Of a stretch of 63,428 nucleotides of DNA, positions 41,024 to 58,479 are shown piece after piece. Under the pieces are notes generated by a model. It was not told where the DNA came from and did not search any database. It saw only the letters and a program-made list of their open reading frames with translations. Numbering within the stretch: the first letter of the stretch is position 1; every line of letters begins with the position of its first letter. Source of the stretch: Thauera sp. (GTDB taxonomy: Bacteria; Pseudomonadota; Gammaproteobacteria; Burkholderiales; Rhodocyclaceae); the NCBI GenBank assembly GCA_017302295.1, contig JAFLDS010000020.1, forward strand, positions 1 to 63,428, in the 5' to 3' direction. A program made the position numbers and the translations under genes.

Positions 41024-41151
41024 CGGCCGAAGACCTTGTACTTGAGGATGACGAACAGGAAGAAGGCGAGCGCCACCGCGGCCAGGGTGAGGCCCATGCG
41101 AAGGTTGGCCGTGCGGCGGTCAGGCTTGGTCATCTCAACGGTTCCGTTCAT
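41020..41151 (-). CDS. Cytochrome oxidase small assembly-type protein, 43 aa
   Basis: Short gene starting MNGTVEMTKPDRRTANLRMG with one C-terminal helix (about residues 20-38) and ending KYKVFGR. ATG at 41133 (MTKPDRR) is an alternative. It overlaps the ctaG start by four bases, which supports it as a real coupled gene. Small single-helix proteins at this place, before ctaG, are known in beta-proteobacterial cox clusters; role unknown. Confidence 0.75.
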   Translation of the reverse strand: MNGTVEMTKPDRRTANLRMGLTLAAVALAFFLFVILKYKVFGR

Positions 41152-41172
41152 GGGTGCCTACGATCCGCGCCA

Positions 41173-41261
41173 GTCTGCGTGTGTGCGCCGCATCCTGCGG
41201 AACTCGCCCTCGCTGCGCCCGGTGCTCGGACAGTCCTCGGATGCTCTGCACACACCCAGAC
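41173..41261 (-). repeat. Covarying-stem hairpin element, copy 1
   Basis: A 47-nt segment (41194-41240) holds the conserved core CGAGGACTGTCCGAGCACCG.. read on the minus strand and is closed by CATC/GATG. Outer arms 41173-41193 and 41241-41261 form an imperfect 21-bp stem built on GTGTGTGC/GCACACAC. It lies between ctaD and the 43-aa gene, in the same sense as ctaD, 46 bp after its stop. Confidence 0.8.
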
Positions 41262-41307
41262 CGTCGCTCGCCTGATACACATCGCGCCCATCGTGGTCAC
41301 CAGCCGC

Positions 41308-42882
41308 TCACCGGACGACCGGAGCCTCCTCGAAAGTGTGGTGCGGCGCGGGCGACGGCACCGTCCATTCCAGGCCCTCGGCGCTTTCCCACGAGCGCGC
41401 CGCCGCACGTTCGCCACCGCGGATGCATTTCACGACGACGACGATGAAGATTAGCTGCGACAGGCCGAAACCGAAGGCGCCGACCGAAGCCAGGGCATTG
41501 AAGTCGGCAAACTGCAGCGCGTAGTCGGGGATGCGGCGCGGCATGCCGGCCAGCCCGAGGAAGTGCATCGGGAAGAAGGTGATGTTGAAGAACACCATCG
41601 AGCACCAGAAGTGCAGCTTGCCGAGCGACTCGTTGGGCATGTGGCCGGTCCATTTGGGCAGCCAGTAGTAGGCGCCGGCGAAGAGCGCGAACAGCGAGCC
41701 GGCGACGAGCACGTAATGGAAGTGGGCAACGACGTAGTAGGTGTCCTGGACCTGGATGTCGATCGGCGCAATGGCGCAGATGAGGCCGGTGAAGCCGCCC
41801 ATGGTGAACACGAAGATGAAACCGGTCGCCCACAACATCGGCGTCTCGAAGGTCAGCGAGCCGCGCCACATGGTCGCCACCCAGTTGAACACCTTCACGC
41901 CGGTGGGCACGGCGATGAGCATGGTGGCGTACATGAAGAAGAGCTGGCCGGCGGCGGGCATGCCGGTGGCAAACATATGGTGGGCCCACACTGCGAAGGA
42001 CAGGATGGCGATTGAGGCCGTGGCATAGACCATGGATGCGTAGCCGAACAGGGGCTTGCGCGCGAAGGTGGGGATGATCTGGCTGACGATGCCGAAGGCC
42101 GGGAGGATCATGATGTAGACCTCCGGGTGGCCGAAGAACCAGAAGATGTGCTGGTACATCACCGGATCGCCGCCGCCGGCGGCGTTGAAGAAGCTGGTGC
42201 CGAAGTGGCGGTCGGTGAGGATCATCGTGACCGCGCCAGCCAGCACGGGCATCACCGCGATCAGCAGGTAGGCGGTGATGAGCCAGGTCCAGCAGAACAG
42301 CGGCATCTTCATCAGCGTCATGCCGGGCGCGCGCATGTTGAGCACGGTGACGACGATGTTGATCGCGCCCATGATCGAACTGATGCCCATGATGTGGATG
42401 GCGAAAATGGCAAGGTCCATGCCCATGCCCATCTGCACCGAGAGCGGCGCGTAGAGCGTCCAGCCCGCGGCGGTGGCACCGCCGGGCACGAAAAAGGAGC
42501 CGATCAGCAGGATCGCGGCTGGCGGCAGCAGCCAGAAGCTCCAGTTGTTCATGCGCGCGAACGCCATGTCGGATGCGCCGATCATCAGCGGAATCATCCA
42601 GTTCGCGAAACCGACGAAGGCCGGCATGATGGCGCCGAACACCATGATCAGGCCGTGCATGGTGGTGAGCTGATTGAAGAACTCGGGCTGCACAACCTGG
42701 AGGCCGGGCTGGAAGAGCTCGGCCCGTATCGTCAGCGCCAGCACGCCCCCGGACAGGAACATGATGAAGCTGAAGATCATGTACATCGTGCCGATGTCTT
42801 TGTGGTTGGTCGTCGTGAGCCATCGCATCAGGCCGGTCGGGCCATGATGTCCGTGCAACTGATCCGGGGTCACTGCGGCCAT
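41308..42882 (-). CDS. ctaD: Cytochrome c oxidase subunit I
   Basis: 524-aa heme-copper oxidase subunit I, type aa3. The start at 42882 has AGGAGGAG upstream. It has 12 helices, with the heme a and CuB ligands in the TMHGLIMVFGAIMP, WFFGHPEVYIMILP and AHHMFATGMP segments. The GHPEVY Glu/Tyr pair belongs to the A1-type K/D-channel oxidases. Together with coxB and ctaE it forms the core of the aerobic terminal oxidase. Confidence 0.98.
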   Translation of the reverse strand: MAAVTPDQLHGHHGPTGLMRWLTTTNHKDIGTMYMIFSFIMFLSGGVLALTIRAELFQPGLQVVQPEFFNQLTTMHGLIMVFGAIMPAFVGFANWMIPLMIGASDMAFARMNNWSFWLLPPAAILLIGSFFVPGGATAAGWTLYAPLSVQMGMGMDLAIFAIHIMGISSIMGAINIVVTVLNMRAPGMTLMKMPLFCWTWLITAYLLIAVMPVLAGAVTMILTDRHFGTSFFNAAGGGDPVMYQHIFWFFGHPEVYIMILPAFGIVSQIIPTFARKPLFGYASMVYATASIAILSFAVWAHHMFATGMPAAGQLFFMYATMLIAVPTGVKVFNWVATMWRGSLTFETPMLWATGFIFVFTMGGFTGLICAIAPIDIQVQDTYYVVAHFHYVLVAGSLFALFAGAYYWLPKWTGHMPNESLGKLHFWCSMVFFNITFFPMHFLGLAGMPRRIPDYALQFADFNALASVGAFGFGLSQLIFIVVVVKCIRGGERAAARSWESAEGLEWTVPSPAPHHTFEEAPVVR

Positions 42883-42959
42883 GCGGACTCCTCCTGGCGG
42901 ATGGCGACGAATATGCTTCGGGCAGACGTGTTGCGCTTGCAGCTGCGATGCCGGCCGCT

Positions 42960-43832
42960 TCAACCTTTTCCGGCCGTGGCGACCTGCACCCCGGGGGCCT
43001 GCGTCCGGTCAGGAGCAGCAGGGTCGGGCGCGTCGAACGCGGCGGCCTTGACCTTCTGTTCAGCGACCCAGGCAGCGTACTTTTCCGCCGACAGCACGTG
43101 CACCACCACCGGCATGAAGCCGTGGTCGCGGCCGCACAGTTCGGCGCAGTTGCCGCGGTAAATGCCTTCCTTGTCGGCACGGAACCAGGTGTCGCGGATG
43201 AAGCCGGGGATGGCGTCCTGCTTGACGCCGAAAGCCGGCACCCACCATGAGTGGATCACATCGTTGGCGGTGAGCAGCACGCGGATCTTCTTCCCCACCG
43301 GCACCACCAGCGGGTTGTCGACCTCGAGCAGGTAGGCGTCGCCCTTGGGTGCGCCGCCCTCGATCTGCGTCCGCGGCGTCGACAACGCGGACAGGAAGCG
43401 GATGCCTTCGCCTTCGCCCTGCAGGTAGTCGTAGCCCCATTTCCACTGATAACCGGTCGCCTTCACCGTGATGTCGGGGTTGGAGGTGTCCTTCATCTCG
43501 ATCACGGTCTTCGTCGCCGGCCACGCCATGCCGAGCAAGATCAGGATGGGGATGACCGTCCACGCGATCTCGACCGCGGTGTTCTCGTGAAAGTGGGCGG
43601 CAACCGCGCCCTTGGACTTGCGGTGCTTGAACACCGCCCAGAACATCACGCCGAACACCCCGACGAAGATGAAGAGGCAGATCACGAGCATCAGCGTGTG
43701 CATGTCGTTGATCTGTTCGGCGATGCCGGTCACCGGTTGCTGCAGGTTGTAACGGGCGTGGGGCTCCTGCGCGCATGACAGCGCTGCGTAAGAGAGGAGC
43801 GGAAAACCTGCGATGCGACCGGCACGACCCAT
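42960..43832 (-). CDS. ctaC: Cytochrome c oxidase subunit II
   Basis: 290 aa. A signal-like segment (GFPLLSYAALSCA) is followed by two helices (about 45-65 and 85-110) and the CuA domain with HSWWVPAFG, and CAELCGRDHGFM carrying the two Cys, Glu, His and Met ligands. No CxxCH heme c site is present, so it is not a caa3 type. The start at 43832 follows GGGGG. Confidence 0.97.
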   Translation of the reverse strand: MGRAGRIAGFPLLSYAALSCAQEPHARYNLQQPVTGIAEQINDMHTLMLVICLFIFVGVFGVMFWAVFKHRKSKGAVAAHFHENTAVEIAWTVIPILILLGMAWPATKTVIEMKDTSNPDITVKATGYQWKWGYDYLQGEGEGIRFLSALSTPRTQIEGGAPKGDAYLLEVDNPLVVPVGKKIRVLLTANDVIHSWWVPAFGVKQDAIPGFIRDTWFRADKEGIYRGNCAELCGRDHGFMPVVVHVLSAEKYAAWVAEQKVKAAAFDAPDPAAPDRTQAPGVQVATAGKG

Positions 43833-43910
43833 AACGACCCCCAGCAGATGCGGATTTGGCAGGTGCGGCCGATGGTGCCATACGAAATTTGGCACTCGCA
43901 ACACGACTCC

Positions 43911-43924
43911 TTGATAAAAATCAG
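43911..43924. promoter_or_regulatory. FNR/Anr-like box upstream of the aa3 oxidase operon
   Basis: TTGATAAAAATCAG matches TTGAT-N4-ATCAA in nine of ten positions. It is 79 bp upstream of the ctaC start. Placed near the promoter it would let FNR turn the aerobic oxidase off without oxygen. The rest of the 258-bp gap to the phosphate symporter gene holds no gene. Confidence 0.55.
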
Positions 43925-44090
43925 CGTATTGCATTGCGTCATCTGCTAGCGACCAGAGCCCGCAACAGCTCTGCGGCCAAATTGGGGGTTTTCCCGAAGG
44001 GCATTTTTCCGCTGTGCAACATTACCTGCAGCACGGCCACACCTGCTCGGCCGCGCCAGCACGCGCCGAGCTTGAGGGCGGCACGTTCCC

Positions 44091-45836
44091 GTGCGCGGGG
44101 AATCGGTATTACCCTGTCGGCTCCCTCCGCTTCGGCACTGCAAGACCTTGGCCCCTGCAACCCCGACCCCATTCGAGCTGTTTTCCGGCCTGACGGGCGG
44201 CATCGGCATGTTCCTGCTCGGCATGCACATGCTGACCGAAGGCCTCAAGCTCGCCGCTGGCCGCGCGCTCGAAAGCCTGCTCGAAAGTGGCACGTCGACG
44301 CGCCTGCGCGGCCTGGCGGCAGGCGCACTGATCACTGCGCTGGTCCAGTCCTCTACCGCGGTCACGGTGGCCAGCATCGGCTTCGTCAACACCGGGTTGC
44401 TGTCGCTGCGCAACGCGATGTGGGTGATCTTCGGCTCCAACGTCGGCAGCACGCTCAACGCCTGGCTGGTCGCCGCGCTCGGCTTCGGCCTCAAGATCGA
44501 CGCCTTCGCCCTGCCGCTGATCGGCGTGGGCGCGATCATGTTGTTCGCCGGGCGGACGGTGCGCTCGCGCGCCATGGGACAGGCCCTGGCGGGTTTCGGC
44601 GTGCTCTTCCTCGGCATCGACGTGCTCAAGGAGGGGTTTTCCTCGTTCGGCACGCGCCTCGAGCTGGCCAGCTACTTGCGGCCGGACTACGTCGGCTACC
44701 TGATCCTGGTCGGTGTCGGCACGGCGCTGACGGTGCTGATGCAGACCTCCAGCGCCGTCATCGCGATCGTCATCGCCGCGGCGCAAGGCGGCCTGATCCC
44801 GGTCGACGCGGCCTGCGCCATCGTCATCGGCACCAACGTCGGCACACCCTCGACGGCCATTCTTGCCGCGATCGGCGCCACCGCCAACGCGCGCCGACTG
44901 GCGGCCGTCCACGTGCTGTTCAACCTCGTGACCGGCGCCGTCGCCCTGCTGATGCTGCCCTTGCTCATCGCCCTGCTCGACCTGATGCGCAGCTGGTTCG
45001 ACCAGCCTGCGACGCCGGCGGTCATGATCGCGATGTTCCACACGGCATTCAACGTGCTCGGCGTGCTGCTGATGATCCCGATCGCCGGCACCATGCTGCG
45101 CACCCTGCGCAAGCGCTTCCGCACGCGCGAGGAAGAGATCGCCCGCCCCCGCCATCTCGACCGCAACAGCCTCGCGGTGCCCGACCTCGCCGTGCGGGCG
45201 CTGCGCATGGAGCTCGCCCGCACCCAGGCATTCGCCAGCGCAAGCCTCGACGCCTCCGCCACCATCCCGCCCAATGAGTCGATCCTTGCCCGCGAAGCCG
45301 GCGCGCTGCAGGCGCTCGCGCCGGCGATCGCGAACTATGCCCACCAGCTCAGCGGAGCACGACTGCCGCCCTCGCTGGTCGACGTGCTCGCACGCGCATT
45401 GCGCACCCTGCAGTACCAGGAAAATGCGGTCGAAGCGGCGCGCCAGGCGAGCGCGCTGGGCAGTACGCTCGGCGTGCCGACCGACCCCGAACTTGCCGCC
45501 CGGCTCACCGCCTTCCATGCCGCGCTCGACACCCTCGCCACGAGCACCGACATCGAGAAAACGGCGTTCAGCGTCGGCGCCGTCGATATCCTGCTGGACG
45601 CGGCGGAGGAGCACTACGCCCACCTGAAGGAGAGCCTGCTGCAAGCCGGCGCGAACGCGCGCATCGACATCCGCACGATGCAGGACTGGTTGCGGCTCGC
45701 CAGCCTGCAGCGGCGCGCCACCGAGCAAGTGGCGAAGGCCGCACGCATGCTGGCGGCGCTCGAAAGCGGCATCGCCGCACCCGCCGAGACCCTCGGCGAG
45801 GCTGACGACGGCGCGCTGGCAGCGAACGGGAGCTGA
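44091..45836 (+). CDS. Na/Pi-cotransporter family protein with PhoU-like domain
   Basis: 581 aa. Residues about 28-340 hold two inverted Na/Pi repeats with the hallmark QSSTAVTVASIGF and QTSSAVIAIVIA. The C-terminal about 200 residues resemble a cytoplasmic helical PhoU domain. The frame starts at GTG 44091; TTG 44148 is a more compact alternative, and no ATG precedes the first helix. Function is phosphate uptake or export coupled to sodium; no phosphate-regulon partner is adjacent. Confidence 0.9.
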   Translation: MRGESVLPCRLPPLRHCKTLAPATPTPFELFSGLTGGIGMFLLGMHMLTEGLKLAAGRALESLLESGTSTRLRGLAAGALITALVQSSTAVTVASIGFVNTGLLSLRNAMWVIFGSNVGSTLNAWLVAALGFGLKIDAFALPLIGVGAIMLFAGRTVRSRAMGQALAGFGVLFLGIDVLKEGFSSFGTRLELASYLRPDYVGYLILVGVGTALTVLMQTSSAVIAIVIAAAQGGLIPVDAACAIVIGTNVGTPSTAILAAIGATANARRLAAVHVLFNLVTGAVALLMLPLLIALLDLMRSWFDQPATPAVMIAMFHTAFNVLGVLLMIPIAGTMLRTLRKRFRTREEEIARPRHLDRNSLAVPDLAVRALRMELARTQAFASASLDASATIPPNESILAREAGALQALAPAIANYAHQLSGARLPPSLVDVLARALRTLQYQENAVEAARQASALGSTLGVPTDPELAARLTAFHAALDTLATSTDIEKTAFSVGAVDILLDAAEEHYAHLKESLLQAGANARIDIRTMQDWLRLASLQRRATEQVAKAARMLAALESGIAAPAETLGEADDGALAANGS

Positions 45837-45899
45837 AGTTCAGCTCCGCCACTGCCTGCCTCGGCGCTTCGCGCACGCCGTTCGCTGCGGCCTATCCTC

Positions 45900-45905
45900 T
45901 ACAAT
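45900..45905 (+). promoter_or_regulatory. Candidate -10 element of rfaE2
   Basis: TACAAT, 29 bp before the rfaE2 ATG. No clear -35. Confidence 0.35.
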
Positions 45906-45933
45906 TCGTGGCCTTTCGTGACTCCGCCCAGCC

Positions 45934-46422
45934 ATGTCCTACACCCGCCCCGCCTTCGAAGCCAAGATCTGCCCGCCCGACCAGCTCGCGGCCCGCGCCG
46001 CCACGCTGCCCCGGCCGCTGGTGTTCACCAACGGCTGCTTCGACATCCTGCACCGCGGCCACGTGACCTACCTGGCCCAGGCCCGCGCGCTGGGCGCCGC
46101 GATGGTGGTGGCACTGAACACCGACGCGTCGGTGAAGCGCCAGGGCAAGGGCGACGACCGGCCGATGAACCCGCTGGAAGACCGGCTGGCCGTGATGGCC
46201 GCCCTCGAAAGCGTGGATCTCGTCACCTGGTTCGACGAGGACACGCCGATCGCCCGCATCCTCGAAGCGCGCCCCGATATCCTGGTGAAGGGCGGCGACT
46301 GGACACCCGACAACATCGTCGGCGCACCCGAAGTGCGCGGCTGGGGCGGCGAGGTGCACTCCATCCCGTTCGAAGTCGAGCGCTCGACCACCGCGCTGAT
46401 CCGGCGCATCCGAGGAAAGTAG
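45934..46422 (+). CDS. rfaE2: D-glycero-beta-D-manno-heptose 1-phosphate adenylyltransferase
   Basis: 162-aa nucleotidyltransferase making ADP-heptose for lipopolysaccharide core. The motif HRGH (residues 40-43) in GCFDILHRGHVTYL and the later RSTTALIRRI fit the RfaE-II/HldE C-terminal domain. It is a separate protein here; the kinase half is not in this window. Confidence 0.95.
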   Translation: MSYTRPAFEAKICPPDQLAARAATLPRPLVFTNGCFDILHRGHVTYLAQARALGAAMVVALNTDASVKRQGKGDDRPMNPLEDRLAVMAALESVDLVTWFDEDTPIARILEARPDILVKGGDWTPDNIVGAPEVRGWGGEVHSIPFEVERSTTALIRRIRGK

Positions 46423-46434
46423 GCTCCGAACGCA

Positions 46435-46539
46435 GTCGAGCGCGCGGGGTATTCCCGGCGCAGGCGAGGACTGTCCGAGCACCGAGCGCAGCGAGGGCGA
46501 GTTCCGCAGCCTGCAGAGGGAACACCCCGCGTGCTCGAC
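46435..46539 (+). repeat. Covarying-stem hairpin element, copy 2
   Basis: Arms GTCGAGCGCGCGGGGTATTC (46435) and GGAACACCCCGCGTGCTCGAC (46519-46539) form a 21-22 bp stem with two mismatches; inside, GCAGG and CCTGC close the conserved 45-nt core (46465-46509). It starts 12 bp after the rfaE2 stop, in the same sense. Confidence 0.85.
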
Positions 46540-46630
46540 GGCTTGGGCGCGTCCACCGCCTCGAATTCATGCGCGGAATCAGCCAGGTAAGCGTCTCGCC
46601 CGCTCGGGAAAGACGGTAGAATCGCGCCCG

Positions 46631-48460
<1,830 letters not shown>

Positions 48461-48500
48461 ACCTGCGCCTTCAGACTCGGCTCCGTCCGGACGTCCGCCC

Positions 48501-49337
48501 ATGCCCCGCCCCGCCCGTCGCCCGATCGTCGCAGTGCTGCGCATGCTGTGCGCGGCGCTGCTCGGCTACGCAATCTTTCTTGGCTTCCTCTACCTGCGCC
48601 AGGAAAGCCTGATCTTCCACCCGGAGCCGCTGCCGGCCGACTACCGGTTCGACCTCGACCATCCCGGCCAGCGTGTCGACGAGGTGCGCATCGCGGTGCC
48701 CGAGGGCGAGATCCACGCGCTGCACTTCCGCCAATCAGCAGCGCGCGGCCTGGTGTTCTATTTGCACGGCAACGGCGGCAATCTGGCGACCTGGACGGTG
48801 AATGCCGACTTTTATCGCGACATCGGCTACGACCTCTTCATGCTCGACTACCGCGGCTACGGCAAGAGCCGCGGCCGCATCACGAGCGAGGCACAGCTGC
48901 ACGCCGACGTGCGCGCGGCGTGGGAGCGGATCGCGCCCGAGTACGCCGGTCGGCCGATCGCGATCATTGGCCGCTCGCTCGGCTCCGGACTGGCGACCCG
49001 GCTGGCACGCGACGTGCACCCCGCGCTGCTGGTGCTGGTCACGCCCTACACCAGCGCGCTCGCACTCGCGCGCAATCACTACCCCTTCGTCCCCGGCTGG
49101 CTGATGCGCTACCCGCTGCGCAGCGACGCCCTGATGGGCGACATCGCCAGCCCCATCCTGCTGATCCATGGCACGGAGGACGCGCTCACGCCGCTCACGC
49201 ACTCGCACGCGCTGCTCGCCCTCGCCAAGTCGCCGGCCGAATTGCTGGAGATCCCCGGCGCCGGACACGAGGATGTGCACGAATTCCCCGCCTACCGCGC
49301 CGGCCTCGCCCAGCGCCTGCAAAACCTGGCCCGATGA
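48501..49337 (+). CDS. Membrane-anchored alpha/beta hydrolase
   Basis: 278 aa with an N-terminal helix (about residues 15-35, MLCAALLGYAIFLGFLYL), then the alpha/beta fold. The oxyanion region is YLHGNGGNLATW (near 87), the nucleophile Ser is in IGRSLGSGLA (near 158), an acidic residue in LIHGTEDALTP, and the His in IPGAGHEDVHE. It resembles the YfhR/BEM46 group of serine hydrolases. Its substrate is unknown. Confidence 0.9.
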   Translation: MPRPARRPIVAVLRMLCAALLGYAIFLGFLYLRQESLIFHPEPLPADYRFDLDHPGQRVDEVRIAVPEGEIHALHFRQSAARGLVFYLHGNGGNLATWTVNADFYRDIGYDLFMLDYRGYGKSRGRITSEAQLHADVRAAWERIAPEYAGRPIAIIGRSLGSGLATRLARDVHPALLVLVTPYTSALALARNHYPFVPGWLMRYPLRSDALMGDIASPILLIHGTEDALTPLTHSHALLALAKSPAELLEIPGAGHEDVHEFPAYRAGLAQRLQNLAR

Positions 49338-49372
49338 CCACGGCCGCGGCGCGGCCGTCCGCCCGCTCGCGC

Positions 49373-50353
49373 TCAGAACGACTTGCTCACGCCGAGCATC
49401 GCGGCCCAGTCCGACGTAAGTTGCACGCCGTTGACATGCTGATGGATGGGCAGTTGCGCGAATGCATAGACCTGGAAATCGCGCGCGATGGCGTAGCTCA
49501 GGCCGGGACTGAGAAACAGCTTGCGCGACCCGCTGTCCTCGGGCTCAGCCTCGACGCCTCGGTCACGGCTGCGCAACTGGAAGTTCGCCTGCATGAAGGC
49601 GGCCCACTGCGGTGCCAGTTGCCGCTGCCAGCCGACATCGACGCCGTACTGGTTGCCGGGCCGGAAGCCGTCGCGCTGGTCGATGGGCATCTGTGCCGTC
49701 ACCTGCGCGAAAAGCGCCGAATCGCCGTCGGCGAGCGGCAGCCGATACCAGGCGCTGACGATGGCGTCGGTGGTGCCGGTGCCGGGCTGCAGGCTGCGTT
49801 CGGCACGCTGTCCGTCGGCGTTGTCCACCTTGTGGCTGCCGGTGGGGAGCTTGAAGCCGAAGTTCACGCCGGCGCTGGGAGACAGTCCGTCGCCCATGAA
49901 TTGGTAGCGTCCGACCACGCGCATGTCGCCGATGCGGCTGAAATTCCAGGAATCGGTCTCGTGCGAGACGCTGCCATCGTGTTCGTGATGATTGTGGATG
50001 TGCGAATGGCTGCGGCTCGTCACCGGCAACGTGACCGATATGCCCCAGCGCGGGTCGATCGCATAGTCCAGCGTGCCCAGCCAGTTGCGGTTGATCGTGC
50101 GCAGTTCGTCGTGATGGCGCGCAACGTCGCCGACGGAGGCATCGTGCGAGCCGCGGCGCAACTGGTCCTGGTCGATGAACTGGTACTGCAGGTCCAGCCG
50201 CAGCCCCGGCTCGGTCCATACCCCCTGCGCATGCCAGTTGGTGTTGATCGGGCAGAACGCCTGGCCGCATGAAGCGACCGCCGGCGGCGAAACCGCGGCT
50301 ACGGCGAGCAGAAACAGGAGCGGGCGGACCGCGGGGCGGGAGCGTTCATTCAT
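49373..50353 (-). CDS. Outer-membrane beta-barrel protein with His-rich loop
   Basis: 326 aa with a signal peptide ending near Ala27. The mature protein opens SCGQAFCPINTNWH (two Cys), alternating aromatic strands follow and the C terminus ends GVSKSF, an outer-membrane signature. A loop at about residues 114-132 is very rich in His (SHSHIHNHHEHDGSVSHE), which suggests metal (Cu, Zn or Ni) binding. The start at 50353 has AGGAATT upstream. I do not recognise a named family; no metal-resistance gene is adjacent. Confidence 0.8.
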   Translation of the reverse strand: MNERSRPAVRPLLFLLAVAAVSPPAVASCGQAFCPINTNWHAQGVWTEPGLRLDLQYQFIDQDQLRRGSHDASVGDVARHHDELRTINRNWLGTLDYAIDPRWGISVTLPVTSRSHSHIHNHHEHDGSVSHETDSWNFSRIGDMRVVGRYQFMGDGLSPSAGVNFGFKLPTGSHKVDNADGQRAERSLQPGTGTTDAIVSAWYRLPLADGDSALFAQVTAQMPIDQRDGFRPGNQYGVDVGWQRQLAPQWAAFMQANFQLRSRDRGVEAEPEDSGSRKLFLSPGLSYAIARDFQVYAFAQLPIHQHVNGVQLTSDWAAMLGVSKSF

Positions 50354-50460
50354 ATGAATTCCTGGCTGTTCGTCGGCGGGGCAATATAGCAAGCCCATCT
50401 GCAGCCGATCATGCGACGCGATGTCGCACCGCCAGGCGGACCGAGCCCCGCCGCTGCGGG

Positions 50461-50889
50461 TCAGTCCGCCGTCCGGCCGCCGCGCTCGGCGCGCCACGCG
50501 GCGAAGGTCCACGACACGCTCGCCGTATCCGACACGGCGAAGAACAGCGCCAGCGGCGCGGGGACGATGCCGTGGTACCACAGCGCGGCCATGATGAAGG
50601 GCACCAGCGGGCGATCGAGCATGGACGCGAACACGAAGCCGCGCGCATCGAGCCGCCCGCTCACCACATAGAGCATGCCCAGCCCGCCCAGCAGCAGGCC
50701 CACCAGGCGGAAATAGTTCGCGGCCTGCTCGCTCAGCCCCGGCAGGTGCAGCAAGGCCGCCACCTCATGCGGCGCGAGCAGCACGAATGGCGCCTCCGCC
50801 AGCATGATCCAGCCGAACACCTCGACCGTTCGCGCCGAACGGGATTGTCCCGCGGCGGAGCGCAGGCGCTCCAACAGTGCTTGCGTCAT
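50461..50889 (-). CDS. Small four-helix membrane protein, unknown function
   Basis: 142 aa with helices at about residues 24-45, 58-80, 90-108 and 110-128. The start at 50889 follows GGAGGGGG. No recognisable family motif. It ends 107 bp before the barrel gene, on the same strand. Confidence 0.75.
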   Translation of the reverse strand: MTQALLERLRSAAGQSRSARTVEVFGWIMLAEAPFVLLAPHEVAALLHLPGLSEQAANYFRLVGLLLGGLGMLYVVSGRLDARGFVFASMLDRPLVPFIMAALWYHGIVPAPLALFFAVSDTASVSWTFAAWRAERGGRTAD

Positions 50890-51009
50890 GGTTGCCACCC
50901 CCTCCGGCCCGCGATCGCTGGCGCGCGTGCGGACTCCGCGCGATGGTCGGTACACGGTTCATCATGGCGCCGACGCGCCCCATCCGCCACCGCGTTCTTG
51001 CCTACCATG

Positions 51010-51046
51010 AAAGAGGACGGGAGCCTCGTGGGCTCCCGTCCTCTTT
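51010..51046. terminator. Strong bidirectional hairpin terminator
   Basis: AAAGAGGACGGGAGCC-TCGTG-GGCTCCCGTCCTCTTT: a 16-bp perfect stem with a short A/T tail on each side. It serves the dehydrogenase gene (stop at 51069, minus strand). Confidence 0.85.
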
Positions 51047-51068
51047 CACTTCGTCGGCAGGCGACGGA

Positions 51069-52118
<1,050 letters not shown>

Positions 52119-52233
52119 GGGTGTCTCCTTCCTTTTTGGTGAAGTGTGCCGGCCAGCGCGCCCCGGGGCGTTTGGCCACGAGGCTGCGTGGCCGGCGGGT
52201 TGTTGATTCGATGAAATGTCCTGACGCTGCGGC

Positions 52234-52293
52234 GTAGGAGCGGGCTTGACCGCGATCCGGTGGATGACGTGTCGCGCTCAAGCGCGCTCCTAC
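52234..52293. repeat. REP-like inverted pair, locus e
   Basis: The arm 52234-52256 (GTAGGAGCGGGCTTGACCGC) is of one sub-type and the inverted arm 52271-52293 is of the other (GTCGCGCTCAAGCGCGCTCC), so the hairpin is imperfect. It lies between two genes on the same strand. Confidence 0.75.
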
Positions 52294-52310
52294 AAGAGAT
52301 GGCGACAGGG

Positions 52311-55300
52311 TCAGCTGGCGAACACCGGGATGACCTTGCGCAGCCGCGCCGGCGCTGCATCGGCGACGTGCGCCTTGCTGCGGAAGCGTTCGAGCAGTGC
52401 CGCCTCGCGCTTGCGGGCATTGGCCAGGTAACGCTCGCGCACATGGCCGAAGCCGCGGATCTGCTCGGGGATGGAGGCGAGCTCCACCGCCGTCTCGTGG
52501 TTGGCGAGTTCGAGGCCGGCAAGGATTTCCTCGACCAGCTTCTCGTAGCCGGCGATCAGCTCGCGGTCGAGCTTGCGGTCGTGGCTGCGGGCGAAGGGGT
52601 CGAGCAGGCTGCCGCGCAGGTGGCGGAACTTCGCCAGCACGCGCATCGCCTTCAGCATCCACGGGCCGTAGGTCTTCTTCTTCAGCTCTCCTGTCTGCGG
52701 ATCCTTGTCGGCCAGGGTCGGCGGCGCGAGGTGGAAGACGAGCTTGTAGTCGCCCTCGAACTGCTCGTCGACGCGCTTCAGGAAGTCGCTGTCAGTGTAG
52801 AGGCGCGCCACTTCGTACTCGTCCTTGTAAGCGAGCAGCTTGTGGTAGCCGCGCGCCACCGCTTCAGTGAGCAGCGTGATGCCCGGCGCCACTCGCGTCT
52901 CGGCGGCGCGCACGCGCTCGACCAGCTTCGCGTAGCGACCGGCGTAAGCGGCGTTCTGGTAGTCGGTGAGCTGCGCCATGCGCCGGGCGATGACCTCGTC
53001 GAGGCTCTGCGACAGCGTGTGGTGCGCCGGGGTGCCGTGCTGCGGTTTCGCCGCTTCGCTCACCGACTTCAGGTCCACCGCGGCACGACGGCCCCACAGG
53101 AAGGCGGCCTTGTTGGCCTCGATCGCGGCGCCGTTGATTTCGATGGCGCGCAGGATGGATTCGCCGGCAAGCGGCACCAGCCCCTTCTGCCACGCGTAGC
53201 CGAGCATGAACAGGTTGGTCGCGATCGAGTCGCCCAGCAGCGCGGTGGCGAGCCGGGTGGCGTCGATGAACTCGGCACGCTCGCCACCGACCGCCTCGAC
53301 GATCTGCGCCTCCATCGACCCGGCCGGAAACTGCGGGTCCGGGTTGGCGGCGACGTTGCCGCTGCGGGCCTGGGCGGCGAAGCCGCGCACAAACTCGCTG
53401 GTCATCGTCTGGTCGCGGTTGATCACGACCCGGGTGTGCCCGGCGCGCATCTTGGCGAGCGACTCGTCGCCGGCCGCCACCACCAGGTCGCAGCCGATCA
53501 CCGCATTGGCCTCGCCGGCGGCGACGCGGGCGGCGTGGAGCTGCTCGGGCGTATCGGCGATGCGAACATGCGACCACACCGCGCCGCCCTTCTGCGCCAG
53601 GCCGGCCATGTCGAGCACCGAGATGCCCTTGCCTTCCAGATGCGCGGCCATGCCCAGCAGCGCGCCGATGGTCACCACGCCGGTGCCGCCGACGCCGGTG
53701 ATCAGGATGCCCCACGGCGCCGAGGTCGCCGGCAGTTGCGGCAACGGCAGGTCGGAGAACGCCATCGCGGCGGCGCCCACCGCCTTGCCCTTCCTCAGCT
53801 TGCCGCCCTCGATGGTAACGAAGCTGGGGCAGAAGCCCTTCACGCAGGAGAAGTCCTTGTTGCACGACGACTGGTCGATCGCGCGCTTGCGGCCGAACTC
53901 GGTCTCCACCGCCCCCACCGACATGCAGTTTGACTTCTCGCTGCAGTCGCCACAGCCTTCGCACACCAGGTCGTTGATGACCACGCGCTGCTGCGGATCG
54001 GGGAACTTGCCGCGCTTGCGGCGGCGGCGCTTCTCGGCGGCGCAGGTCTGGTCGTAGATGATGGCAGTCACCGCCGGCACTTCGCGCAGCTCGCGCTGCA
54101 CCGCGTCCATCTCGTCGCGATGGCGGATGGCGATGCCATGCGGCAGGTCGGCCAGGCCATAGGCGCGCGCCGTGCCGTCATTGACCACCACCACGGTGCC
54201 GACGCCTTCGGCCAGCAGTTGGCGGGCGATGATGGGCACCGACAGCGTGCCATCGTGCGGCTGGCCGCCGGTCATGGCGACCGCGTCGTTGTACAGGATC
54301 TTGTAGGTGATGTTCACCTTGGCCGCCACCGCCGCGCGGATGGCGAGGATGCCCGAGTGCATGTAGGTGCCGTCGCCGAGGTTGGCGAACACGTGCGGCG
54401 TTTTCGTGAAGGGCGACTGGCCGACCCACGGTACGCCCTCGCCCCCCATCTGGCAGAAGGTCTGGGTGTGCTCGGGCGACAGCCAGGTGGCCATGTAATG
54501 GCAGCCGATGCCGGCGATGGCACGCGAGCCTTCCGGCACCTTGGTCGAGGTGTTGTGCGGGCAGCCGGAGCAGTAGTGCGGCACGCGCGCGATCGACAGG
54601 CGCGGCTTGGCGAGCGCCGCCTCCTTGGCCTCGAGGAACACCAGCCGCGCCTTGATGCGGTCGGACGTGTAGAAGCGCGCGATGCGGGCGGCGATGGCGC
54701 GCGCGATCATCGCCGGCGTCAGTTCGCCGGCGGCGGGCAGCAGCCAGTCGCTGTGCGGCAGGGCCCACTCGCCCTTCTCGTCGAACTTGCCGATCACGCG
54801 CGGGCGCACGTTCTCGTTCCAGTTGTAGAGCTCTTCCTTCAACTGGTATTCGAGGAACTGGCGCTTCTCCTCGATCACCAGGATCTCGTCCAGGCCGTCG
54901 GCGAACTGGCGCACGCCCTCGGCTTCCAGCGGCCACACCATGCCCACCTTGTACAGGCGCAGGCCGATCTCGGACGCGACCTTGTCATCGATGCCGAGGT
55001 CTTCCAGCGCCTGGCGCACGTCGAGGTAGCTCTTGCCGCTGGTGATGATGCCGAGCTTCGCGTTCGGGCTGTCGATCACCGTGCGGTTGAGCCTGTTGAC
55101 GCGGCAGTAGGCGAGCGCGGCGTACAGCTTGTGGTGCAGCAGGCGCTTTTCCTGCACCAGCGGCGGATCGGGCCAGCGCAGGTTGAGGCCGTCGGCCGGC
55201 AGCGGGAATTCGTCGGCGGAGGGAATCAGCGTCTGCACCTTGAACGGATCGATATCCACCGACGAAGACGTCTCCACCGTGTCGGTGAGCGCCTTGAACG

Positions 55301-55898
55301 CAACCCAGCAGCCGGAGTAGCGCGACAGCGCGAAGCCGTGCAGGCCGTATTCGAGGTATTCCTGGATGCCGGCCGGCGCCAGCACCGGCATCATCAGCGC
55401 CTTGAACACATGCTCGGTCTGATGCGGCAGCGTGGACGATTTAGCCGCGTGGTCGTCGCCGGCGATCACCAGCACACCACCGTGCTTCGAGGTGCCGGCG
55501 GCGTTGGCGTGGCGCAACACGTCACCGCTGCGGTCCACGCCCGGGCCCTTGCCGTACCAGATCGAGAACACGCCATCGACTGTCGCGTTGGCGTCGAGCG
55601 TGACCTGCTGTGTGCCCCACACCGCGGTGGCGGCGAGGTCCTCATTGAGGCCGGGCTGGAAGCGGATGTTCTTCGGCTCGAGGAACTTCTTCGCCTTCCA
55701 GAATTCCTGGTCGACGTTGCCCAGCGGCGAGCCGCGGTAGCCAGTGACGAAGCCGGCGGTGTTGAGGCCGGCCGCTTCGTCGCGCAGCTTCTGCATCATC
55801 GGCAGGCGCACCAGGGCCTGGATGCCGGTCATCCAGGCGCGGCCGGATTGCAGGGTGTACTTGTCGTCGAGAGTGACGGGGGGCAGTGTGTTCGACAT
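52311..55898 (-). CDS. Fused indolepyruvate:ferredoxin oxidoreductase
   Basis: 1195-aa fusion of alpha and beta/gamma subunits. Residues about 1-440 and 450-620 are the alpha and thiamine-pyrophosphate parts; YCSGCPHNTS near residue 444 is part of the TPP region. A Cys cluster near residues 635-675 (CEGCGDCSEKSNC and CNKDFSCVKGFC) can bind one or two Fe-S clusters. The gamma domain begins with GVGGTGVVTIGALLG near residue 735. The enzyme converts 2-oxo acids such as indolepyruvate or phenylpyruvate to acyl-CoA, CO2 and reduced ferredoxin. It pairs with the amino-acid dehydrogenase next to it. Confidence 0.95.
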   Translation of the reverse strand: MSNTLPPVTLDDKYTLQSGRAWMTGIQALVRLPMMQKLRDEAAGLNTAGFVTGYRGSPLGNVDQEFWKAKKFLEPKNIRFQPGLNEDLAATAVWGTQQVTLDANATVDGVFSIWYGKGPGVDRSGDVLRHANAAGTSKHGGVLVIAGDDHAAKSSTLPHQTEHVFKALMMPVLAPAGIQEYLEYGLHGFALSRYSGCWVAFKALTDTVETSSSVDIDPFKVQTLIPSADEFPLPADGLNLRWPDPPLVQEKRLLHHKLYAALAYCRVNRLNRTVIDSPNAKLGIITSGKSYLDVRQALEDLGIDDKVASEIGLRLYKVGMVWPLEAEGVRQFADGLDEILVIEEKRQFLEYQLKEELYNWNENVRPRVIGKFDEKGEWALPHSDWLLPAAGELTPAMIARAIAARIARFYTSDRIKARLVFLEAKEAALAKPRLSIARVPHYCSGCPHNTSTKVPEGSRAIAGIGCHYMATWLSPEHTQTFCQMGGEGVPWVGQSPFTKTPHVFANLGDGTYMHSGILAIRAAVAAKVNITYKILYNDAVAMTGGQPHDGTLSVPIIARQLLAEGVGTVVVVNDGTARAYGLADLPHGIAIRHRDEMDAVQRELREVPAVTAIIYDQTCAAEKRRRRKRGKFPDPQQRVVINDLVCEGCGDCSEKSNCMSVGAVETEFGRKRAIDQSSCNKDFSCVKGFCPSFVTIEGGKLRKGKAVGAAAMAFSDLPLPQLPATSAPWGILITGVGGTGVVTIGALLGMAAHLEGKGISVLDMAGLAQKGGAVWSHVRIADTPEQLHAARVAAGEANAVIGCDLVVAAGDESLAKMRAGHTRVVINRDQTMTSEFVRGFAAQARSGNVAANPDPQFPAGSMEAQIVEAVGGERAEFIDATRLATALLGDSIATNLFMLGYAWQKGLVPLAGESILRAIEINGAAIEANKAAFLWGRRAAVDLKSVSEAAKPQHGTPAHHTLSQSLDEVIARRMAQLTDYQNAAYAGRYAKLVERVRAAETRVAPGITLLTEAVARGYHKLLAYKDEYEVARLYTDSDFLKRVDEQFEGDYKLVFHLAPPTLADKDPQTGELKKKTYGPWMLKAMRVLAKFRHLRGSLLDPFARSHDRKLDRELIAGYEKLVEEILAGLELANHETAVELASIPEQIRGFGHVRERYLANARKREAALLERFRSKAHVADAAPARLRKVIPVFAS

Positions 55899-56230
55899 GG
55901 TGGCGTGAACCGTCGCGGGCCCCGACGCGGCGCGCTGTTGGCGCGGGCATCCGGCCTGCCGACGTTGTCTCCTGTATGGTTGGTTTTGGTGCTCGTCCGC
56001 GGCATCGAACGGCGAGGTGGCATCGTACGGAGAAGCCGTGGCAGAAAATTTCCTCGATGCGGCGGAAAATCATCGGAGGTGGAAAAGATTTTTCGCGTGA
56101 ACCCGCTTCCGGGGAACGTCCTGCATGCCGACCCTGGGTGCAGTGCAACATCAAGCCGCCGAAGCGAGCGCTTGGACACGCTTTTGTCGCACCGCGTTAC
56201 AGATTCCTCGCGGGTGCATCACGCGAGGGC
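55899..56230. other. Non-coding stretch before ssrA
   Basis: No gene is supported in this 332-bp stretch; it should contain the promoter of the oxidoreductase gene on the minus strand. GC drops near 56040-56100 (AGAAAATTTCCTCGATGCGG), but I do not see a clear promoter or repeat there. Confidence 0.5.
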
Positions 56231-56259
56231 TTGAAAGCGGACGAGCACACCCCCACAAT
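56231..56259 (+). promoter_or_regulatory. Sigma-70 promoter of ssrA
   Basis: TTGAAA (56231-56236), a 17-bp spacer and CACAAT (56254-56259). Expected start near 56266, just at the acceptor piece. Confidence 0.75.
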
Positions 56260-56265
56260 GCAGGC

Positions 56266-56330
56266 ATGGTTGTAATTCCGGCGAGCCGGAGACGTTCTGG
56301 ACGGGGGTTCGATTCCCCCCAGCTCCACCA
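56266..56330 (+). other. tmRNA acceptor piece
   Basis: Contains CCGGCGAGCCGG (small hairpin), the GACGTTCTGGAC strand, the T arm and CCA. The CGTTCT segment can pair with AGGGCG of the coding piece, which would start helix P2. Confidence 0.75.
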
Positions 56331-56366
56331 AAAGGGAATGTCCTTCAGATTGCGTTTTCTTCTGAT

Positions 56367-56520
56367 GGGGCTGACCTGGTCTCGACAGGGCGGGCAAGGG
56401 TTAGCAGGCAACCCGAGAGGCGACGGACGTAATCCGCGCAAAACCACAAACGCCAACGATGAGCGTTTCGCACTGGCCGCTTAAGGCCTATGCCGAGGCT
56501 GCTTGAGCCTTGTTACCAAA
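56367..56520 (+). other. tmRNA coding piece with tag ANDERFALAA
   Basis: The tag frame is 56452-56481, stop TAA 56482-56484, encoding ANDERFALAA. A hairpin GGGTT-AGCAGGC-AACCC follows the 5' region. AGGCT-GCTTG-AGCCT lies after the tag. Confidence 0.85.
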
Positions 56521-56528
56521 GAAAAGCC

Positions 56529-56550
56529 GGCGGGGACTTCGGTCCCCGTC
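56529..56550 (+). terminator. UUCG-loop hairpin after ssrA
   Basis: GGCGGGGAC-TTCG-GTCCCCGTC, 9-bp stem with a stable tetraloop; no T-run follows, so it may be a transcript end or part of the precursor. Confidence 0.5.
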
Positions 56551-56822
56551 GTCACGTCTACGCCACGCGGCGGCCCTTCCCTCGGCAGAAATTGGTCGTT
56601 TGGAGGATTTCCTGCCCGCAACCGGCGCCGCCGCCACGCCTGCATTTCTGTCTGCCCCATCGCCGAGAAAAATTCTTCCCCGATTCGTGTCTTGCAGACA
56701 TCTATCAGAATAATTTTTCCGCTCATCACTTCTTATTATTCGCTTCCGCTGCCGCCCCATCGGTGCGCCAGCGGACCACGACGCGCCACAAGCGCCCGCA
56801 AATAACGAGGAGACAACCCGTG
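56551..56822 (+). promoter_or_regulatory. Control region of the NSS transporter
   Basis: The 272-bp stretch holds no clear gene. Two similar AT-rich sites, GAGAAAAATTCTTCC (56665-56679) and CAGAATAATTTTTCC (56706-56720), are nearly inverted versions of each other and resemble Lrp-type sites loosely. An Lrp-family gene is next to the transporter. A promoter is not assignable with certainty. Confidence 0.4.
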
Positions 56823-56909
56823 ATGAGAACGAAGACGACACTTTTCCTGCGCTGCCCCGGCCGGATCGGCCTGGAGCGACCCCGCCACCGTCGTGCCGAG
56901 GTGCGCTGA
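56823..56909 (+). CDS. Possible 28-aa leader ORF upstream of the NSS transporter
   Basis: ATG AGA ACG .. TGA encodes MRTKTTLFLRCPGRIG.. (28 aa, 8 Arg). GAGGAG lies ten bases upstream, better than the site for the transporter itself, and its stop ends one base before the transporter ATG (TGA-C-ATG). The coupling geometry suggests a real translated leader, but the peptide matches no family and could be chance. Confidence 0.35.
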   Translation: MRTKTTLFLRCPGRIGLERPRHRRAEVR

Positions 56910-56910
56910 C

Positions 56911-58287
56911 ATGTCCGCCACCACGACGCTCTCCGCTGCCGCCGCCTCGGCTACGACGGGCCACGCCCAGTGGTCCTCCCGCATGGGCTTCATCCTCGCC
57001 GCCACCGGTTCCGCGGTGGGGCTGGGCAACATCTGGAAGTTTCCCTATATGGTGGGACAGAGCGGCGGCGCTGCCTTCGTCCTGGTGTACCTCGCCTGCA
57101 TCAGCCTGATCGGCGTGCCCATCCTGGTGTCCGAATGGATGATCGGCCGCCGCGGGCAAAAAAATCCGGTCAACACCATGGCGCAGCTTGCGCGCGCGCA
57201 CGGCCACCACCGCAACTGGGCCCTGGTGGGCGCGATCGGCGTGCTCGGCGCCTTCCTGATCCTGTCCTTTTACAGCGTGATCGGCGGCTGGGCGCTGGCC
57301 TACATGGGCGACGCCGCGTCCGGCAGTTTCAGCGGACTCGACAAGGCCGCGATCGGCGCTGCGTTCGACAACTTCCTCGCTCGTCCGGGCGATCTGCTGA
57401 CCTGGCACACCGTGTTCATGCTGCTGACGGTGGGCGTGGTGGCGATGGGCGTTTCAGCCGGCCTGGAGCGTGGCTCCAAGCTGATGATGCCGGCGCTGGG
57501 CCTGATCCTGGTCGTGCTGGTGGGCTACGGCGCGACGACGGGCAGTTTCGGCGAGGCGGCGGCCTACATGTTCAACCCTGACTGGAGCAAGCTCGACGGC
57601 AAAGTGGTCATGGCCGCGCTGGGCCATGCCTTCTTCACGCTGTCGCTGGGCATGGGAATCATGATGGCCTATGGCTCCTACCTCGGCGAGGATGTGAACC
57701 TGCTGCGCGCCGCCCGCACCGTGGTGGTGATGGACACCGGCTTCGCCCTGTGCGCCGGCATGGCGATCTTCCCCATCGTGTTCGCCAATGGTCTGGATCC
57801 GGCAGCCGGCCCGGGCCTGGTGTTCGTCACGCTGCCGCTGGCGTTCGGCAGCATGAGCGGCGGCCTGGTGCTGGGCACGCTGTTCTTCCTGCTGCTGACT
57901 TTCGCCGCGCTGACCTCGTCGATCTCGCTGCTGGAGCCGGTGGTGGAACTGCTGGAGGAGCGCACCCCGCTGAACCGCATCGGTGCCACCGTGGTGGCCG
58001 GCACGACGATCTGGGCGCTGGGCATCGCCGCCTTGTTGTCCTTCAACCTGTGGGCCGACGTGAAACTGGCCGGGCTGAACATCTTCGACCTGCTCGACCA
58101 CGTCACCAGCAAGTTCATGCTGCCGGTCGCCGGCCTGGGCGCGATCGTGTTCGCGGCCTGGAAGCTGGAGCAACGCAGCGTGCAGCGCGAGCTGGGGCTG
58201 GGCGTCGGCGGTTTCCGCTTGTGGACCCTGCTGGCGCGCTACGTGGCGCCGCTGGGGGTGTTGTTCGTGTTCTGGAACAACCTCTGA
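56911..58287 (+). CDS. Sodium-dependent amino-acid/neurotransmitter-type transporter (NSS family)
   Basis: 458-aa transporter with 11-12 helices. Helix 1 contains the sodium/substrate site GSAVGLGNIWKFPY near residue 40, with the unwound GLGN and FPY hallmark of the LeuT fold. Helix 6 region TLSLGMGIMMAYGSYL is also conserved. It probably imports an amino acid with Na+; which one is unknown. The adjacent dehydrogenase/oxidoreductase and Lrp regulator fit an amino-acid catabolic role. No small partner protein (MetS type) follows. Confidence 0.93.
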   Translation: MSATTTLSAAAASATTGHAQWSSRMGFILAATGSAVGLGNIWKFPYMVGQSGGAAFVLVYLACISLIGVPILVSEWMIGRRGQKNPVNTMAQLARAHGHHRNWALVGAIGVLGAFLILSFYSVIGGWALAYMGDAASGSFSGLDKAAIGAAFDNFLARPGDLLTWHTVFMLLTVGVVAMGVSAGLERGSKLMMPALGLILVVLVGYGATTGSFGEAAAYMFNPDWSKLDGKVVMAALGHAFFTLSLGMGIMMAYGSYLGEDVNLLRAARTVVVMDTGFALCAGMAIFPIVFANGLDPAAGPGLVFVTLPLAFGSMSGGLVLGTLFFLLLTFAALTSSISLLEPVVELLEERTPLNRIGATVVAGTTIWALGIAALLSFNLWADVKLAGLNIFDLLDHVTSKFMLPVAGLGAIVFAAWKLEQRSVQRELGLGVGGFRLWTLLARYVAPLGVLFVFWNNL

Positions 58288-58306
58288 AGGCTCGCTGCTA
58301 AACCGG

Positions 58307-58411
58307 AGCGCCGCACGGGGTATCTGCTCCGCCGGGCTGCGGAACTCGCCCTCGCTGCGCTCGGTGCTCGGACAGTCCTCGCCCGACTCCACAGATACCC
58401 CGCACAGCGCT
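58307..58411 (-). repeat. Covarying-stem hairpin element, copy 3
   Basis: Arms 58307-58326 and 58392-58411 form an imperfect 20-bp stem including CGGGGTATCTG/CAGATACCCCG; inside, CCGGG/CCCG closes the conserved core (58336-58383). In the minus sense it follows the Lrp stop by 53 bp. Confidence 0.85.
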
Positions 58412-58453: not shown

Positions 58454-58479
58454 GCCCTGCCGTCTCACAGCGGCAGGGC
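58454..58479. terminator. Hairpin at the junction of transporter and Lrp genes
   Basis: GCCCTGCCG-TCTCACAG-CGGCAGGGC, 9-bp stem overlapping the last codons of the Lrp gene. On the + strand it is followed by TGTTTCGTTCTTG. Confidence 0.55.

What the first reader, a model, noticed from the sequence alone, without database searches (positions are those of the whole stretch)
41173..58411. Dispersed hairpin element with an invariant apical core and covarying stems
Three intergenic loci (41173-41261, 46435-46539, 58307-58411) carry the same 43-45 nt core (CGAGGACTGTCCGAGCACCG .. GAGTTCCGCAG, two substitutions at most). The flanking arms differ between loci but remain complementary: CATC/GATG, GCAGG/CCTGC and CGGG/CCCG directly at the core, then 20-22 bp outer arms. 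That is covariation supporting a folded unit. All three lie 12-53 bp after a stop codon, in the same sense as the gene (ctaD, rfaE2, lrp). The function could be 3' end stabilisation, a small RNA or a mobile palindrome; I know no name for it. Only three copies are available, so orientation bias may be chance.
Basis: partly seen in the sequence, partly recalled or inferred. Interest (0 to 1): 0.75.

Follow-up and report, generated by a model that had tools for sequence, protein, structure and literature searches.

The report
REP-like mobile hairpin with universal loop
Three odd hairpins in this bacterial chromosome belong to a large family of small scattered DNA elements whose stems differ from copy to copy but still match, while an internal knot of about 30 bases stays nearly the same even in unrelated bacterial phyla.

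Summary
The three hairpins are copies of one family: 28 core matches in this Thauera genome, 338 in 26 of 29 genomes of the genus. Stem covariation is overwhelming: 27 of 36 pairs change on both sides, 96% of cells pair. It is also seen between species at one locus. G.T mismatches outnumber A.C 77:14, so the core strand is constrained as a folded single strand. Copies sit between genes, avoid divergent promoters, come and go between species and pair mostly inverted: REP-like behaviour.
New: the core is not Thauera-specific. It is a two-strand internal-loop module (GCGAGTTCCGCAG / CGAGGACTGTCYGAGC) found in Coriobacteriia, Nitrospira, Omnitrophota, Lachnospiraceae and others, in both strand orders, with unrelated stems. 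No Rfam family matches; its strings occur only in unrelated papers of the library searched. Best reading: a mobile REP-like hairpin whose module is read by a strand-specific enzyme, probably on folded single-stranded DNA. The enzyme was not found; a RAYT is absent from many carriers.

The parts
41166..41268 (-). Hairpin copy 1 (between ctaD stop and the small gene before ctaG); model limits
   Evidence: R1 covariance hit 66.6 bits; sequence
41224..41238 (-). Copy 1, module strand A (GAGGACTGTCCGAGC)
   Evidence: pattern hits
41195..41207 (-). Copy 1, module strand B (GCGAGTTCCGCAG)
   Evidence: pattern hit 41195-41238
46436..46538 (+). Hairpin copy 2 (between rfaE2 and recQ)
   Evidence: R1 hit 86.3 bits; in G013, G016 and G021 recQ follows after 14 bp with no element
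46466..46480 (+). Copy 2, module strand A
46497..46509 (+). Copy 2, module strand B
46434..46456 (+). Copy 2, outer 5' arm (pairs with 46518-46540)
   Evidence: index pairing
46518..46540 (+). Copy 2, outer 3' arm
   Evidence: index pairing
58307..58411 (-). Hairpin copy 3 (between the convergent transporter gene and lrp)
   Evidence: R1 hit 75.7 bits
58366..58380 (-). Copy 3, module strand A
58337..58349 (-). Copy 3, module strand B

Best explanation
The three hairpins are copies of a chromosomal, non-coding, REP-like mobile element. One strand (the one reading CGAGGACTGTC..GAGTTCCGCAG) folds into a long hairpin. Its stems are free in sequence but must pair; a fixed internal loop inside it (a 3-bp GGA/UCC helix, an asymmetric U / CUGUC loop and a tandem G.A step YGAG/CGAG) is the part that is recognised. 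Shown: the fold, its strand specificity in Thauera, presence/absence between species, the bias to gene 3' ends and against divergent promoters, the mostly inverted pairing, and the same module in both strand orders in other phyla. Inferred: that the module is the docking site of a strand-specific enzyme working on folded single-stranded DNA (as TnpA-REP, IS200/IS605 transposases and integron integrases do), that this enzyme acts in trans and moves or copies the hairpins, and that the exclusion from promoters is purifying selection after insertion. The enzyme is not identified.
For: Covariation: 33 copies, 36 pairs, 96.3% of cells paired against 38-47% for slid partners; 27 pairs changed on both sides. 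Strand specificity: outer-stem G.T 77 against A.C 14 in 46 de-duplicated copies, 213 against 27 in all 119. Inside the module the middle pair of GGA/UCC is G-C in 139 and C-G in 11 of the 150 listed matches (of 338), never mismatched, although the pattern allowed any bases there; further C-G copies stand in G006 and G013. Presence/absence: rfaE2-recQ gap occupied in G000, empty in G013, G016 and G021; lrp gap occupied in G000 and, as a copy that lost strand A, in G016, with no module in the other 18 of 20 loci; one site occupied in G006 and empty in G000. 98 of 99 copies intergenic, 3 of 93 in divergent gaps against 11 of 42 unoccupied gaps (p 1.6e-4). Pairs closer than 400 bp in the 150 listed rows: 26 -/+, 5 +/-, 0 direct (my hand count). 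35 of 93 contigs outside the Rhodocyclaceae that hold an exact A also hold B within 110 nt, controls 0 and 1 of 93. Unique apical loops are C(GNA)G triloops in 26 of 37 (Thauera) and 16 of 49 (others), a loop type that I recall as specially stable in DNA. Published precedent for strand-specific recognition of hairpin irregularities: PMC8266576 (passages).
Against: No mobilising gene was found: Y1_Tnp is absent from G000 and from other carriers such as G001 with 65 copies; the Pfam scan of 73 ORFs near copies in other phyla shows no recurring mobile-element family (which shows 25 of 102 families). No sharp ends or target duplication were defined. Complementarity is also maintained between species at one locus, which suggests a function in place and not only at transposition. 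G.T excess is weak or absent outside Thauera (AB 23:13, BA 34:29). No match in the plasmid or phage collections. Direct close pairs do exist outside the listed rows (L052, L201, L255, L073).
Confidence: 0.5

Rival explanations
1. The element works as RNA: a structured RNA motif (small RNA, 3'-end stabiliser or protein-binding site) whose internal loop is bound by a conserved protein or ligand; dispersal is secondary.
For: Wobble pairs tolerated on one strand only; RNA folds at z -5 to -7; in-place compensation between species; location 3' of genes; some copies in Coriobacteriia enclose terminator-like hairpins (L188, L116). PMC3733652 suggests RNA roles for REPs because of G-T pairing (section 5 read).
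Against: Orientation to genes is not biased in two separate clades, 37:26 and 7:10. In the three window regions there is no promoter-like match, and the terminator-like hairpins found (one of 5 bp at 41065-41077, and four overlapping ones at 58454-58483 by lrp) lie outside the elements. No Rfam match (only weak chance-level microRNA and isrG hits). Apical loops are often GNA triloops, with a single GNRA tetraloop among 86 unique loops.
Confidence: 0.25
2. A known RAYT (TnpA-REP) family mobilises it and the element is an ordinary though large REP.
For: GTAG lies in the 5' flank of 17 of 133 copies against 1 of 133 at the 3' side; in 4 of 30 Y1_Tnp loci of the genus (G004, G005, G009, G020) a copy lies just upstream of the gene; inverted dimers as in REPs.
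Against: Those RAYT genes carry their own, different flanking repeat. Y1_Tnp is found in 17 of 29 genus genomes and is absent from G000, G001, G016, G017, G021, G022 and others that carry the element, and is found in 11 of 23 of a set of mostly distant carriers. None of the 17 loci of that second search has the module. Most copies lack GTAG.
Confidence: 0.12
3. The matched arms are a by-product of mutation: template switching repeatedly corrects quasi-palindromes, with no selection on the fold.
For: Many changes are clean two-sided replacements (48 against 16 one-sided broken).
Against: That process should be strand-symmetric, while G.T exceeds A.C 5.5-fold in Thauera; it cannot explain the invariant module or its pair swap. 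The near-equal G.T and A.C of the BA copies in other phyla (34:29) would fit it there.
Confidence: 0.06
4. The module is a small nucleic-acid catalyst or aptamer core (like a ribozyme with two free helices), which would explain both strand orders.
For: Two conserved strands joined by arbitrary helices, in both circular permutations, in unrelated phyla.
Against: No family of Rfam, ribozymes included, matches; activity untested.
Confidence: 0.07

Closest known systems
REP / BIME / REPIN elements (GTAG and CGTC super-families)
   Same: Dispersed, extragenic, palindromic, stems with alternative complementary residues and G-T pairs, often in dimers, head-tail dimers absent or rare (PMC3733652 section 5).
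   Different: About 105 nt instead of 20-40 bp (size from the PMC3733652 abstract); no constant GTAG tag (17 of 133); large invariant internal-loop module shared across phyla; many carriers lack a RAYT. The published Thauera GTAG-1 REP has 5-bp stems and is a different repeat (PMC3733652 passages).
IS200/IS605 ends and TnpA-REP substrates
   Same: Strand-specific folded hairpins recognised by irregularities in the stem (PMC8266576, passages).
   Different: No Y1 transposase is generally linked to the family here; arms far longer.
Integron attC sites (recalled)
   Same: Structure conserved, sequence free, one strand functional.
   Different: The conserved part here is an internal-loop module, not the outer R boxes; no cassette array was seen. 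No integrase search was made.
Structured RNA motifs of Rfam
   Same: Covarying stems around a fixed internal loop.
   Different: No family reaches threshold at the element; orientation to genes is not biased.

Membership tests
REP (GTAG super-family) | GTAG (or close variant) tetranucleotide at one end of the palindrome | tested here: not met
   17 of 133 copies have GTAG in the 5' flank, 1 of 133 at the 3' side
REP (GTAG super-family) | Short palindrome, 20-40 bp | tested here: not met
   Element about 105 nt with about 27 paired positions per arm
REP / BIME | Dispersed, extragenic, often in inverted dimers | tested here: met
   98 of 99 intergenic; 31 of 31 close pairs among the 150 listed rows inverted, with direct exceptions elsewhere
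REPIN with RAYT | A rayt (Y1_Tnp) gene in the same genome | tested here: not met
   No Y1_Tnp in G000, nor in 12 of 23 further carriers tested; drafts may be incomplete
IS200/IS605 | Y1 HUH transposase gene between the ends | tested here: not met
   No transposase among the six genes identified between or beside close copies; no Y1 in G000
Intrinsic terminator | GC hairpin followed by a T run | tested here: not met
   No run of four or more T follows any of the three window hairpins; terminator-like matches lie outside them
Integron attC | R box GTTRRRY/RYYYAAC at the base and IntI in the genome | not tested
   No integrase or box search was made
Rfam families | Score above the gathering threshold | tested here: not met
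   Only tmRNA models in the window; none in 15 loci of other phyla

The most novel reading that the evidence does not exclude
A phylum-spanning structural module: two conserved strands (about 29 nt) that form one internal loop, usable in either strand order and with any helices, spread as chromosomal hairpin repeats in Betaproteobacteria, Coriobacteriia, Nitrospirota, Bacillota, Omnitrophota and others by an unknown enzyme that reads the shape of one strand and not its stem sequence: a new class of shape-recognised mobile element, or a catalytic or aptamer core.
Probability: 0.4. Interest if true: 0.88.

Novelty: new variant of a known kind. Interest (0 to 1): 0.74.

Why it matters
REP-like palindromes are usually lineage-specific and tied to a RAYT. 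Here the same internal loop of about 29 bases recurs across bacterial phyla in both strand orders while the stems change, so shape rather than sequence is what is kept. Finding its partner could reveal a new single-strand DNA (or RNA) processing system, and the stem-free module could be a tool for shape-directed recognition.

Tried and rejected
RAYT link: first suggested by copies next to Y1_Tnp genes in G004, G005, G009 and G020 (4 of 30 genus loci; a fifth match, in L196, lies inside the gene and looks like chance). Rejected as a general explanation because those genes have their own repeats, many carriers have no Y1_Tnp and the 17 loci of the second search have no module.

Clean insertion ends: comparing G006 copies with G021, G013 and G000 gave occupied, degenerate and empty sites but no precise ends or target duplication, because the species are too diverged. 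In one search the L361/L373 pair is out of register (asymmetric inner loop) and contributes only 'same' and 'broken' cells; it was kept in the total. The G013 copy at the ctaD site is so different that it may be an independent insertion.

Rows dropped: for the covariation alignment, 1 of 58 gap-7 copies was dropped for poor pairing (10 paired positions) and the rest thinned to 33, which leans slightly to the structure. For the arm test outside Thauera, 1 of 66 copies (L239) was dropped; without that filter the medians are 39.6 own and 11.7 swapped, 1 of 300 swaps reaching the own median. The loop tally uses the filtered 65.

Neighbour genes as mobiliser: six genes between or beside close copies are ordinary. 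Of 249 ORFs near copies in other phyla I gave 73 to the Pfam scan; it shows 25 of 102 families, none in more than two members. A rarer family could be missed.

Plasmids, phages and E. coli: no match to a 44-nt core. Viral contigs: one AB hit (L220), no BA hit. Literature: the core strings occur only in papers whose titles are unrelated (36 papers, 34 listed); the repeat papers looked at do not describe this family in the passages read, and a Coriobacteria search found nothing. Exact strings only were searched.

Context counts use my own codon-based gene caller, not an annotation.
Full report
What is there. The three loci carry hairpins of about 105 nt around an almost identical 45-nt core. The core strand is minus for copies 1 and 3 and plus for copy 2. 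Arms differ between the loci and pair within each. A covariance model built from 33 copies elsewhere finds these three in the window and nothing else below E 0.4.

The genome and the family. The window is contig 13 of a 4.11-Mb draft. A pattern that leaves one pair of the module free finds 28 copies in this genome and 338 in 26 of 29 genomes of the genus (sum of the table), 65 of them in G001, with no hit for the reversed control. Among 150 relatives the A string is found in 28 genomes but in only 4 of 118 genera, and in a sample of 398 genomes of the phylum only this genome and one other match the stricter pattern, so the spread is very patchy.

The fold. On 33 copies less than 80% alike in their arms (thinned from 58, one dropped for poor pairing), the structure with 36 pairs has 96.3% of cells paired, 27 pairs with two-sided changes and a covariation score of 0.535 against 0.172 shuffled; sliding the partners drops pairing to 38-47%. 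Swapping arms between copies halves the score, and 0 of 300 swaps reach the median of true pairs. At presumed orthologous loci in related species (14 comparisons, not independent) I count 48 two-sided changes that still pair, 30 one-sided changes that still pair, 16 one-sided breaks and 4 two-sided breaks. So complementarity is kept in place as well as between copies.

One strand matters. With scoring that treats G.T and A.C alike, outer stems of 46 de-duplicated copies have 77 G.T and 14 A.C mismatches on the core strand (binomial p about 1e-11). A palindrome corrected by template switching should be symmetric. In other phyla the excess is not clear: 23:13 for the AB order and 34:29 for the BA order.

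The module. Conservation is confined to strand A, CGAGGACTGTCYGAGC, and strand B, GCGAGTTCCGCAG. They can be drawn as a 3-bp GGA/UCC helix, a U opposite CUGUC, and a tandem G.A step between YGAG and CGAG. Two observations support the drawing. The C to T change at Y keeps a wobble pair in 10 of 33 copies. The middle pair of the 3-bp helix is G-C in 139 and C-G in 11 of the 150 listed matches, with no mismatch although any bases were allowed. The 11 come from two related genomes, G001 and G016, and more stand in G006 and G013, so they may be one event followed by spread. A longer variant of strand B occurs in several species.

Other phyla. Among 114 contigs with an exact A string, B (up to one mismatch) lies within 110 nt in 18 of 21 Rhodocyclaceae-type contigs and in 35 of 93 others, against 0 and 1 of 93 for two controls. 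By record title, 20 of the 35 are Coriobacteriia (six of them from one genome bin); the rest are Omnitrophota, Myxococcales and Lachnospiraceae (three each), another Bacillota, a gemmatimonadete, a Bdellovibrio, a Gallionella, a Luteibacter and a Gracilibacteria bin. A Nitrospira also carries it, with one C/T change in strand A. Twenty-six of the 35 have the order B-A and nine A-B. Stems differ between them but pair within each: median arm score 39.6 against 11.7 for swapped arms over 66 copies, one of which (L239) does not pair well. In one Coriobacteriia genome the inner stems are also long and all different (L268, L269). Whole-genome counts of the 13-nt B string are 1-33 in the 24 cellular genomes tested; they are clearly above the reversed control in most, but not in G150 (5 to 4) and G164 (1 to 4), and G158 has 1 to 0.

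Where copies sit. Of 99 Thauera-group copies, 98 are intergenic; of 93 with both neighbours called, 63 are in tandem, 27 in convergent and 3 in divergent gaps, against 11 divergent of 42 unoccupied gaps of 100 bp or more in the window and five loci. Orientation to the gene in tandem gaps is 37 same and 26 opposite (p 0.21). In Coriobacteriia it is 7 same and 10 opposite, with 7 of 36 copies called inside genes by a rough gene caller and no avoidance of divergent gaps (4 of 25).

Mobility. In three relatives (G013, G016, G021) recQ follows rfaE2 after 14 bp with no element; nine further rfaE2 hits have no module but mostly other neighbours. The lrp gap has no module in 18 of 20 loci. The ctaD gap is occupied in six species, inverted in G001 and degenerate in G016, where loss of the 3' arm goes with three changes in the module (all). 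One site is occupied in G006 and empty in G000. Pairs closer than 400 bp in the 150 listed rows are 26 -/+, 5 +/- and 0 direct (hand count), but direct pairs exist elsewhere (L052, L201, L255, L073).

What moves it. A RAYT was the obvious candidate. Y1_Tnp is missing from this genome and from many rich carriers, and the 17 loci of the second Y1 search lack the module. The four adjacent cases have their own RAYT repeats. No neighbour family recurs in the part of the ORFs scanned. The mobiliser remains unknown.

DNA or RNA. For DNA: unbiased orientation to genes in two clades, C(GNA)G apical triloops (42 of 86 unique loops; their special stability in DNA is recalled), and published strand-specific recognition of hairpin irregularities by ssDNA enzymes (PMC8266576, passages read). 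For RNA: the share of wobble pairs, stronger RNA folding and in-place compensation. I favour single-stranded DNA but not strongly.

What is known. REP families share the genomic behaviour (PMC3733652, section 5 read), but the GTAG tag, the size and the RAYT are not met here. The Thauera REP and RAYT in print are another repeat as far as the passages show (PMC3733652 and PMC2817692, passages). The core strings occur in the searched library only in papers with unrelated titles, and no Rfam family matches (at a lax threshold gives only weak hits far below their cut-offs).

Verdict.

Noticed in passing
L056, L061, L071, L106, L355, L384: A longer variant of strand B (GCGCTCATTTGCGTACCCTCCGC or close, plus an extra hairpin before GCAG) occurs with strand A in several Thauera species.
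   Followed up: partly
L163, about 786-900: Gemmatimonadetes contig with tandem modules in B-A order, so A and B alternate along the DNA.
   Followed up: no
L188, L116, L268: Coriobacteriia copies whose inner stem is itself a long palindrome, in L188 with A/T-rich ends like a two-way terminator, clamped by the module.
   Followed up: partly
L199, L201, L209, L211: A RAYT-type gene of about 300 aa with GTCAGGTCTTTCATTTGCTCA repeats upstream and TGAAAGACCTGACCCC at its end, with a hairpin copy upstream in four species.
   Followed up: partly
L328, L331, L333 (orthologues of the lrp site): Other species carry quite different repeat arrays in the gap where this genome has copy 3, so the gap looks like an insertion hotspot.
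   Followed up: no
56217-56554: tmRNA gene matching the beta_tmRNA and permuted tmRNA models.
   Followed up: no
58454-58479: Strong terminator-like hairpin overlapping the lrp stop codon, separate from hairpin copy 3.
   Followed up: no
L077, L106, L115 (paired copies): Paired hairpins at about 150-230 bp share imperfect inner repeats of the type GCTCAA...TTGAGC, suggesting a composite unit of about 330 bp.
   Followed up: no
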